A stretch of DNA of 32,214 nt from Candidatus Nitrotoga fabula. Its GTDB lineage: Bacteria; Pseudomonadota; Gammaproteobacteria; Burkholderiales; Gallionellaceae. The position numbers were made by a program, and so were the translations under genes. Numbering within the stretch: position 1 is the first letter of the stretch; every line of letters begins with the position of its first letter. Below, in pieces: positions 3,087 to 4,846 of the stretch. Location: NCBI RefSeq assembly GCF_905221025.1, contig NZ_CAJNBL010000012.1:1-32214 (forward strand). The letters are read 5' to 3'. Under the pieces are notes generated by a model. It was not told the DNA's origin. It did no database searches and saw only the letters and a list, made by a program, of their open reading frames with translations.

Positions 3087-3320
3087 ATGGTAACGATCAA
3101 TCCAGCAATATCATTGGAACCGAAATCTACTTCGAATGTGGTTCGGGTTGCAGTTCCTGCCAGCGTACACAACAATCTGGAAATGATACAAAAAGTACAG
3201 CGCGAAATCCTGGGGAAACTGGGCTGCCTGGCCTGCTGCTCAGGGTGGGACATCCGCTTCGATTTCCAGAAACAGTTTGTTGTGGACAAGAATATGAATA
3301 TTAAGGAAATTGCAAGATAA
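3087..3320 (+). CDS. Small CxxCC peptide, candidate substrate of the MNIO enzyme
   Basis: The 77-residue protein starts at an ATG preceded by TTGGAG with suitable spacing; this start gives a short gene ending five bases before the MNIO start. There is no signal peptide or membrane segment. The N-terminal half is a possible leader (VVRVAVPAS, then a predicted helix around residues 28-44). It is followed by G46-C47-L-A-C50-C51-S-G-W-D and a hydrophobic tail (IRFDF, FVV). Three cysteines in a CxxCC cluster beside a DUF692/MNIO gene match the pattern of known MNIO substrates, which carry modified Cys or Asp residues. Being a precursor peptide is inference: it might instead be a folded partner subunit. 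I do not recognise a characterised homologue. Confidence 0.7.
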   Translation: MVTINPAISLEPKSTSNVVRVAVPASVHNNLEMIQKVQREILGKLGCLACCSGWDIRFDFQKQFVVDKNMNIKEIAR

Positions 3321-3325
3321 ACCCT

Positions 3326-4846
3326 ATGGCCCACCTCAAACCGGCAGCTTTTTCCCCCACGCCACTTGGGGTGGGCATGGTTTATTTTCCTGCACTCGAT
3401 TTTTTATTTGAACACTGCAGCAATTTGCTGGACGTAATCGAGATTGAGCCACAGACGCTCTGGTTCCGCAGCCCCGGTACCACCAATGCGCATCGTCTGG
3501 ATGATCGCGCTTTTGAAAGGGTGATACGACTTCCACAACATAAACTGATACACGGCGTTGGTTTGCCGCTCGCCGCAAGTGAGAAGTTCGAATCCAGGCA
3601 GATTCCGCCCTGGAGGCAAAGCATTTCCAGATTAAACCCTCCCTGGATCAGCGAACACCTGGCCTTTATGCGTATACCTAACAAAGGACAAGGAAAGACC
3701 AGTCACCACAGCGGCTTCCTGCTACCCCCGTTACAGTGCCAGGAGACAATGGACATAGCCATTGCCCGGATCGCAGAATTGCGAAAACTGAGTGCTGTTC
3801 CGGTAGCCTTTGAAATCCCTCCGAATTACCTCCGGCCACAGCCGGGAGAAATACAGGACGGTGACTTCTTTGCACAAATTGCAACTGCAGCTGATTGTGG
3901 CATCGTGCTGGATATACATAACCTCTGGTGCAATGAGCGGAATGGCCGCCAGAAAATGCAGGATGTACTGGAAAGGCTGCCTCTGGATCGCATCTGGGAA
4001 ATTCATCTCGCTGGAGGCGACAACCACCATGGTTACTGGCTGGATGCACACAGCGATCTCGTACCGCAACCGGTCATGGAATTCTGTGAGGAATGGCTCC
4101 CGAGACTCCCCAATGCCGGAGCACTGATTTTCGAAATCATGCCCGTCTATATTCATGCCAAAAAAATACCAGTCGACCGGATTGCAACTCAGCTTGAGAA
4201 AATGAAATTCTTGTGGCACGCTCGCCAAAAAATCCTTCCCATAACAATTTCCAGAAGCCAGAATCCGGTTCACTCCATGACATGGATACCAGAACATAGC
4301 CATAATGTGAATGCAGCCGCATATCAGAAAGTCGTCCGCTGGGAACAGTCACTGGGTGAAATGGTCAATGGACGCAGCGTGTCTATTCAAAATATTCATT
4401 TCCCCGCACTTGTAGATGACCCGGCTGTACCGGTGTATCGGACCCTGATTGAAAGCTTTCGATCCGGGACACTGGTTGAAGGACTCCCCCTGAGCTATCG
4501 GCTACTGGCCCTGACGCTTGGCGAGAATGTCACCTACAGCCTGATGAAGGAATTCTGGAGCGGTTGCTGGCCCGAGCCGTTTGCCTATGATGAGATGCTG
4601 GGATTTTCCACCTTCCTGCACCAGAAAATAAATGACAAAAAACTGTCCGTAAATTTTCTTGACAATGTTCTCAATTATGAAATTGCAGTCGCGCAAGCAC
4701 AGATGTCCGGACAGGAGCAATTCGTTCCATTCGACTGTGAACCCATTGCCCTGTTGGAGGCACTTTCGCGGTGGGAACTGCCGGCCAGCCATACCCCTGG
4801 AAAATTTGAAGTCCAGGTTCCTGCATGGAACATGCAGGAACCATAA
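3326..4846 (+). CDS. DUF692 / MNIO (multinuclear non-heme iron oxidase) with C-terminal extension
   Basis: Residues 1-290 or so form a DUF692 TIM-barrel domain. Family-type iron-ligand motifs are visible in order: H76 in LIHGVGLPL, E110-H111 in SEHLAF, E163 in FEIPPNY, D196 and N199 in LDIHNLWCN, H227 in EIHLAGG, D240 and H242 in LDAHS, and E270 in IFEIMP. Characterised MNIOs (MbnB, TglH, BufB types) oxidatively modify Cys, Asp or Asn residues of ribosomal peptides, usually with a partner protein that binds the leader. Here residues about 320-506 form a second domain whose end (FSTFLHQK, LNYEIAVAQAQ, then ALLEALSRWELPASHTPGKFEVQV) loosely resembles the C-terminal part of DUF2063 partner proteins, so enzyme and partner may be fused. 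The start lies five bases after the peptide stop, implying translational coupling. Chemistry and product are unknown. Confidence 0.88.
   Translation: MAHLKPAAFSPTPLGVGMVYFPALDFLFEHCSNLLDVIEIEPQTLWFRSPGTTNAHRLDDRAFERVIRLPQHKLIHGVGLPLAASEKFESRQIPPWRQSISRLNPPWISEHLAFMRIPNKGQGKTSHHSGFLLPPLQCQETMDIAIARIAELRKLSAVPVAFEIPPNYLRPQPGEIQDGDFFAQIATAADCGIVLDIHNLWCNERNGRQKMQDVLERLPLDRIWEIHLAGGDNHHGYWLDAHSDLVPQPVMEFCEEWLPRLPNAGALIFEIMPVYIHAKKIPVDRIATQLEKMKFLWHARQKILPITISRSQNPVHSMTWIPEHSHNVNAAAYQKVVRWEQSLGEMVNGRSVSIQNIHFPALVDDPAVPVYRTLIESFRSGTLVEGLPLSYRLLALTLGENVTYSLMKEFWSGCWPEPFAYDEMLGFSTFLHQKINDKKLSVNFLDNVLNYEIAVAQAQMSGQEQFVPFDCEPIALLEALSRWELPASHTPGKFEVQVPAWNMQEP

What the first reader, a model, noticed from the sequence alone, without database searches (positions are those of the whole stretch)
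3087..4846. Two-gene MNIO operon with a CxxCC peptide: candidate undescribed RiPP-type system
A 77-residue peptide with C47-L-A-C50-C51-S-G-W-D lies five bases before a DUF692/MNIO enzyme that keeps all recognisable iron-ligand motifs. Known MNIO substrates (methanobactin, TglA, bufferin, aminopyruvatide types) do not, as far as I recall, have this cluster followed by a hydrophobic tail. There is no signal peptide as in bufferins and no exporter next to it, so the product may stay in the cell or be a modified protein. The presence of copA nearby in the window makes metal handling a possibility, but that is only inference.
Basis: partly seen in the sequence, partly recalled or inferred. Interest (0 to 1): 0.82.

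Follow-up and report, generated by a model that had tools for sequence, protein, structure and literature searches.

The report
Two-gene cassette for modified cysteine mini-protein
A gene for a small cysteine-bearing protein sits beside a gene for an iron enzyme that probably rewrites its cysteines, and the same pair recurs in distantly related bacteria, so it looks like a real but rare modification system that nobody has yet tested at the bench as far as could be found.

Summary
Confirmed: a 77-residue peptide (3087-3320; C47-x-x-C50-C51-S-G-W-D) lies five bases before a 506-residue MNIO enzyme (3326-4846). Eight of TglH's nine iron ligands map by alignment and are identical in 15 of 15 family enzymes; the ninth (E270) fits by position only. 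The pair is a conserved cassette: 15 loci, 17 peptide genes, the peptide next to the enzyme in 15 of 15. A peptide model made without the pattern hits, with the motif masked, picked exactly the 11 of 46 pattern stretches that carry the enzyme. Best reading: one chain, MNIO plus partner, oxidises the CxxC(C)SGxD loop of a small, probably cytoplasmic protein. Chemistry and role are inferred. "Undescribed" is too strong: a 2025 survey lists "adjamnio-IV" (119-146 residues, 5-6 Cys, CxxCC, before MNIOs); I could not see its alignment. Two two-domain relatives fit that description; the window's form (77 residues, 3 Cys) does not. New variant of a known kind.

The parts
3087..3320 (+). 77-residue peptide with C47-x-x-C50-C51-S-G-W-D, the likely substrate
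3225..3251 (+). codons 47-55, the C-x-x-C-C-S-G-W-D loop (likely modification site, inferred)
   Evidence: conservation tallies; loop between helix and strand in the model
3326..4846 (+). 506-residue MNIO enzyme fused to a partner-like domain
3326..4225 (+). MNIO catalytic domain, about residues 1-300, with the iron ligands
   Evidence: PF05114 covers residues 74-267; model; ligands
4313..4843 (+). C-terminal DUF2063/PME-like partner domain, residues 330-506
   Evidence: profile comparison with BufC, E 8e-7, best of 30 shuffled controls 0.078

Best explanation
This is a self-contained two-gene MNIO modification cassette. The second gene makes one chain that carries both the multinuclear non-haem iron oxidase and a DUF2063/PME-like partner domain, joined by a flexible linker. 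The partner domain holds the peptide encoded just before it, and the iron centre with O2 oxidises a cysteine of the LG-C47-x-x-C50-C51-S-G-x-D loop. C50 is my first choice: it is kept in 21 of 21 domains, and in the 17 C-type domains it always follows a small residue (Ala, Ser or Gly). The product probably stays in the cytoplasm as a modified small folded protein, since no signal peptide and no shared protease or exporter goes with the pair; binding a soft metal such as copper is the likeliest role. Shown: the pair, its conservation and co-occurrence, eight iron ligands, the partner-like domain. Inferred: that the peptide is the substrate, which atom changes, that it stays inside, and the metal role (about 0.3 taken alone).
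For: Peptide directly followed by the enzyme gene in 15 of 15 loci. With the motif masked, a model from 5 peptides found without the pattern scan scored 12 ORFs in 11 of 46 stretches at E <= 3.6e-10 (next best 3.6), the same 11 that have an MNIO. The 11 genomes holding those loci gave 15 domain hits, all in the cassette. Eight iron ligands identical in 15 of 15 enzymes. C-terminal domain against BufC: 91.6%, E 8e-7; reverse 1.8e-6; controls: best of 30 shuffles 0.078, reversed 0.28, BufB 0.068. Structure model closest to TglH and MbnB. An engineered HvfB-HvfC fusion is active (PMC13419390, passage), so one chain is workable. One locus, L119, has the cassette straight after a bufferin-type operon.
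Against: No experiment. The partner assignment rests on profile comparison alone; TglI or MbnC did not appear among the 50 Foldseek rows shown, and the second structural aligner was not available. The bufferin neighbour is 1 of 15 loci, and no metal gene is shared among the loci compared. The peptide model is of moderate confidence (pLDDT 76, pTM 0.53). The ninth iron ligand is placed by position only.
Confidence: 0.6

Rival explanations
1. A conventional RiPP: the modified loop and tail are cut out by a protease encoded elsewhere and exported as a small natural product.
For: Known MNIO products of the signal-peptide-less kind (methanobactin, pearlin, aminopyruvatide) are small molecules (PMC12452194).
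Against: No protease or transporter is shared between the loci compared (query print-out of five of 13 loci); conservation runs on after the loop (F64, V66-D67 region); two-domain forms keep the whole unit.
Confidence: 0.15
2. The enzyme changes another residue, the invariant D55 or the aromatic residue 54, rather than a Cys.
For: D55 is kept in 17 of 17 C-type domains; other MNIOs act on Asp, Asn and Phe (PMC12452194).
Against: Residue 54 varies (W 8, F 7, L 1, Y 1); the known Asp and Asn targets are C-terminal, D55 is internal; Cys is the commonest MNIO target (PMC12452194).
Confidence: 0.13
3. The peptide is an unmodified accessory, for example a small metal carrier or regulator of the enzyme, and the true substrate lies elsewhere.
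For: A CxxCC loop could bind metal as it is; two peptide copies accompany one enzyme in 2 of 15 loci (L049, L119).
Against: Gene order (precursor, then MNIO) and the Cys motif match known MNIO precursors (PMC12452194), and the fused domain already fills the partner role.
Confidence: 0.08

Closest known systems
adjamnio-IV putative precursors (Antoine et al. 2025, PMC12452194)
   Same: CxxCC motif, no signal peptide, gene directly before an MNIO with no separate partner listed; two-domain relatives L116 and L127 here are 143 and 145 aa with 5 Cys, inside the published 119-146 aa and 5-6 Cys.
   Different: The window's peptide is one domain, 77 aa, 3 Cys; relatives L121 and L113 (161, 169 aa) are longer than the published range. 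The text I read does not mention a fused partner.
Bufferins, BufABC (PMC12452194)
   Same: Peptide then MNIO; the C-terminal domain resembles BufC; best NCBIfam match BufB, 112 bits.
   Different: BufB cut-off is 310 bits; no signal-peptide-like stretch; partner is fused; the enzyme falls outside the bufferin rows in the tree.
TglHI, pearlin maturation (PMC10880893)
   Same: Closest solved structure (8hci, E 3.4e-17) and closest PDB sequence; eight iron ligands shared.
   Different: The peptide does not end in Cys; the essential Asn73 of TglH corresponds by alignment to Val78; partner is fused.
MovX (PMC12452194; PMC13419390, passages)
   Same: An MNIO without a separate partner that carries an extra fused domain.
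   Different: MovX's extra domain is described as winged-helix/RRE; here it is DUF2063-like and helical with a short beta-alpha-beta end.

Membership tests
MNIO superfamily (PF05114) | Profile match above the curated cut-off | tested here: met
   130 bits against 25
MNIO superfamily (PF05114) | The nine iron ligands seen in TglH | tested here: inconclusive
   Eight map by alignment and are identical in 15 of 15; the ninth, E270, fits by position only
Bufferin system | BufB-type enzyme by NCBIfam cut-off | tested here: not met
   112 bits against 310
Bufferin system | Sec signal peptide on the precursor | tested here: not met
   Hydropathy proxy only: highest 15-residue mean in the first 40 is 0.58 in the window, at most 1.05 in 17 of 17, against 2.10-2.53 in three bufferin controls
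Bufferin system | Separate DUF2063 partner gene after the MNIO | tested here: not met
   No such gene follows; a similar domain is fused
Pearlin (TglA/TglHI) | Cys at the C-terminus of the scaffold | tested here: not met
   Encoded peptide ends in Ala-Arg; the Cys is added by a separate enzyme in pearlins and none was looked for in the genome
Methanobactin | MbnB-type enzyme by NCBIfam cut-off | tested here: not met
   20 bits against 325
Aminopyruvatide | ApyH-type enzyme by cut-off and C-terminal Asp on the precursor | tested here: not met
   87 bits against 400; peptide ends in Ala-Arg
adjamnio-IV | CxxCC motif and gene directly before an MNIO | tested here: met
adjamnio-IV | 119-146 residues with 5-6 Cys | tested here: not met
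   77 residues, 3 Cys in the window; relatives L116 and L127 do meet it
adjamnio-IV | Sequence alignment to its members (Fig. S3) | not testable with these tools

The most novel reading that the evidence does not exclude
A single-chain MNIO with a built-in partner installs a new oxidative modification in the loop of a folded cytoplasmic mini-protein. The product is not a secreted natural product but an intracellular protein with a protein-derived metal site or cofactor, passed between phyla as a two-gene cassette.
Probability: 0.35. Interest if true: 0.8.

Novelty: new variant of a known kind. Interest (0 to 1): 0.62.

Why it matters
It may be among the smallest complete MNIO systems: two genes, one enzyme chain, one substrate, so the role of the partner protein and the choice of modified residue can be tested with two genes. 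It would widen MNIO targets to what looks like a folded cytoplasmic protein, and it gives a residue-level definition (LG-C-x-x-C-[CT]-S-G-x-D-I, with a degenerate H-x-x-C domain in the two-domain forms) by which more can be found.

Tried and rejected
Single-sequence searches found nothing beyond the window's own genome: P0001 in genome contigs and viral contigs, P0002 in viral contigs and plasmids, P0002 in 398 genomes. P0001 found only distant MNIOs in 61 relatives and 398 genomes (one search listed only matches at E <= 1e-17) and in plasmids (326 records, all under 60% identity, none with one place covering 80%), and nothing in phages. The family came out only with a degenerate DNA pattern, whose expected chance count was not measured by a tool.

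Rejected hits: L095 from viral contigs (motif in an unrelated 225-residue frame); the G142 hit (22 bits, a frame that reads like a GGDEF protein) and the G790 hit (23 bits, stop-filled). 35 of the 46 pattern stretches have no MNIO and no masked-motif score better than E 3.6.

Promoter- and terminator-like sites were no more than in shuffles. Base composition gives no sign of transfer (GC: peptide 0.449, enzyme 0.509, window 0.506). An empty-site test was not decisive: the HbpS-like gene after the cassette is kept at 77-82% in 10 of the other 18 genomes of the genus, but in the six stretches compared none of the other seven window genes tested was found. A structural check of the C-terminal domain could not be run. 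The copA link was dropped.

Full report
OBSERVATION. The two genes are as described. The peptide is 77 residues; the 506-residue enzyme starts five bases after its stop. The enzyme matches PF05114 at 130 bits (cut-off 25). The peptide itself has no Pfam or NCBIfam match up to E 1; among the 13 rows of its alignment only single weak matches appear (best E 0.057 in Pfam, 0.02 in NCBIfam). The enzyme is the only PF05114 match at E <= 0.001 in the window's 2.3-Mb genome.

THE FAMILY. Single-sequence searches found no relatives, so I scanned the genome collection (one genome for each of 84,980 species) with a degenerate pattern for C-x-x-C-C-x-G-[aromatic]-D-[ILV]-x-F. It gave 46 stretches, of which 11 have an MNIO gene next to the motif ORF. 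Their record titles name Nitrosospira briensis, Comamonadaceae, Thiobacillus, Candidatus Thiothrix singaporensis, Pseudomonadales, Glutamicibacter soli, Corynebacteriales, Solirubrobacteraceae, Anaerolineales, Synechococcaceae and Cyclobacteriaceae; that these span five phyla is recalled taxonomy. Profile searches of sampled genomes added three: G575 among 274 genomes of the window's class and G1244 and G1286 among 296 of the phylum of G710. With the window that makes 15 loci and 17 peptide genes. The enzyme is the next gene in 15 of 15, mostly close by; in L113 the gap is 141 bases or more.

CONTROL FOR CHANCE. A peptide model built only from five sequences found without the pattern scan was applied to the 47 motif ORFs of the 46 stretches, with the motif replaced by X. 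Twelve ORFs in 11 stretches scored E <= 3.6e-10 and the next best 3.6; those 11 stretches are the 11 with an MNIO. A search of the 11 genomes gave 15 domain hits, all in the cassette. Elsewhere the profile found 1 of 146 genomes in the phylum of G718 (plus one chance hit) and 1 of 201 in that of G716, in each case the genome already known. The pair is rare and patchy: of 125 genomes in the family of Nitrosospira briensis only that one has the enzyme at E <= 1e-40, and among 60 other relatives of the window's genome P0001 finds only partial matches of E 5.7e-22 or weaker.

PEPTIDE ANATOMY. In the 17 C-type domains C47, C50, S52, G53 and D55 are kept in 17 of 17 and C51 in 16 of 17 (Thr in L126); residue 49 is A, S or G; residue 54 is W 8, F 7, L 1, Y 1. 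Four members have two domains, the first with H-x-x-C-x-[ST]-G, so C50 is present in 21 of 21 domains. Two loci have tandem genes (L049, L119). The AlphaFold2 model (13 rows; pLDDT 76, pTM 0.53) shows strand, helix, Cys loop, strands; Foldseek gave no match at E <= 0.001 (best 0.035). No peptide has a signal-peptide-like stretch by a hydropathy proxy. Purifying selection is seen in the 3 of 7 pairs where dS could be computed.

ENZYME ANATOMY. AlphaFold2 (7 rows) gave pLDDT 85.5 and pTM 0.85, with a low-confidence linker at 307-327. Foldseek's best match is TglH (8hci, E 3.4e-17), then a DUF692 protein and MbnB. TglH's ligands were taken from passages of PMC10880893. Eight map through the profile alignment and are identical in 15 of 15 enzymes. 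The ninth, TglH E258, is not placed: that alignment sets it two residues from E270, and an alignment with 26 BufB-type enzymes leaves a gap. E270 remains the likely one because it is identical in 15 of 15, ends a predicted strand and has nearly the same spacing from the preceding His ligand (28 against 27). TglH's Asn73 corresponds to Val78.

PARTNER DOMAIN. P0001 has no Pfam match past residue 267 at E <= 1. A profile of the 15 C-terminal domains (from residue 330) matches a profile of 20 BufC proteins (20 kept of 24 candidates from 26 bufferin-type loci): probability 91.6%, E 8e-7; reverse comparison E 1.8e-6. Controls: best of 30 column-shuffled profiles E 0.078, reversed profile 0.28, BufB profile 0.068. 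These E-values are for one profile against one. No structural comparison of this domain could be made.

TREE. The 15 enzymes lie on one side of a fully supported branch (100/100) against 34 other MNIO domains. TglH, MbnB, ApyH and ChrH were not in that tree, and its root is not known. Inside it the rows from Actinomycetota records mix with Pseudomonadota and Bacteroidota rows, which suggests horizontal transfer (inference; composition in the window gives no sign of it).

SURROUNDINGS. An ORF comparison of 13 loci (L126 and L127 not included; print-out for five loci as query) showed the peptide, the enzyme, their antisense frames and a few generic signalling proteins as shared. Two single cases are suggestive. 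In L119 the cassette directly follows a bufferin-type operon: an 88-aa Cys-rich peptide without Pfam match, an MNIO, a DUF2063 protein. In Nitrosospira briensis it lies just past prophage-like genes: integrase after tRNA-Cys, major head protein, tail protein, terminase small subunit. In the window the neighbours are a porin, a cytochrome b561 and an HbpS-like protein.

MECHANISM. Most likely the fused partner domain presents the peptide and the iron centre oxidises a Cys of the loop. In 5-thiooxazole formation the 4-Da loss was localised to Lys-Cys pairs (PMC13097082, passages); here the equivalent pair would be residue 49 and C50. One chain is workable, because an engineered HvfB-HvfC fusion was active (PMC13419390, passages). 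That text names MovX and ChrH as exceptions to the separate partner and, in the passages I saw, no natural DUF2063 fusion. Everything past 'conserved pair, intact iron site, partner-like domain' is inference.

WHAT IS KNOWN. L116 and L127 fit that (143 and 145 aa, 5 Cys); L121 and L113 are longer (161, 169); the window's form does not fit. Literature searches: MNIO with CxxCC gave one paper, this one; the motif letters gave none and 'adjamnio' only this one; searches on MNIO with fusion, partner or mining terms were judged from listings plus passages of six papers and showed no natural fusion of this kind. The library lacks most subscription journals. So the class was probably noticed and not characterised; the single-domain form and the fused partner appear new in what I could search.

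VERDICT. Real, conserved, compact, untested. New variant of a known kind; interest 0.62.

Noticed in passing
   Followed up: partly
L117:1871-14482: In Nitrosospira briensis the cassette lies just past prophage-like genes: tRNA-Cys, integrase, major head protein, tail protein, terminase small subunit, so it may travel as cargo.
   Followed up: partly
window:6034-6339 (minus strand): A 101-residue protein with three CPAGY/CPTGY...SGxYC repeats and a hydrophobic N-terminus; only weak, sub-cut-off Pfam matches.
   Followed up: no
window:1796-2413: The cytochrome b561 gene before the cassette has a His/Asp-rich insert (DEDDHHDDHNDEDE), perhaps metal-binding; only 1 of the other 18 genomes of the genus has a match at E <= 1e-20 (47% identity).
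   Followed up: no
L157:2701-6852: On a Burkholderia stagnalis plasmid a 77-residue hypothetical protein (2701-2934) precedes an MNIO and two methyltransferase genes: another possible MNIO cluster, unrelated in the tree (long branch).
   Followed up: no
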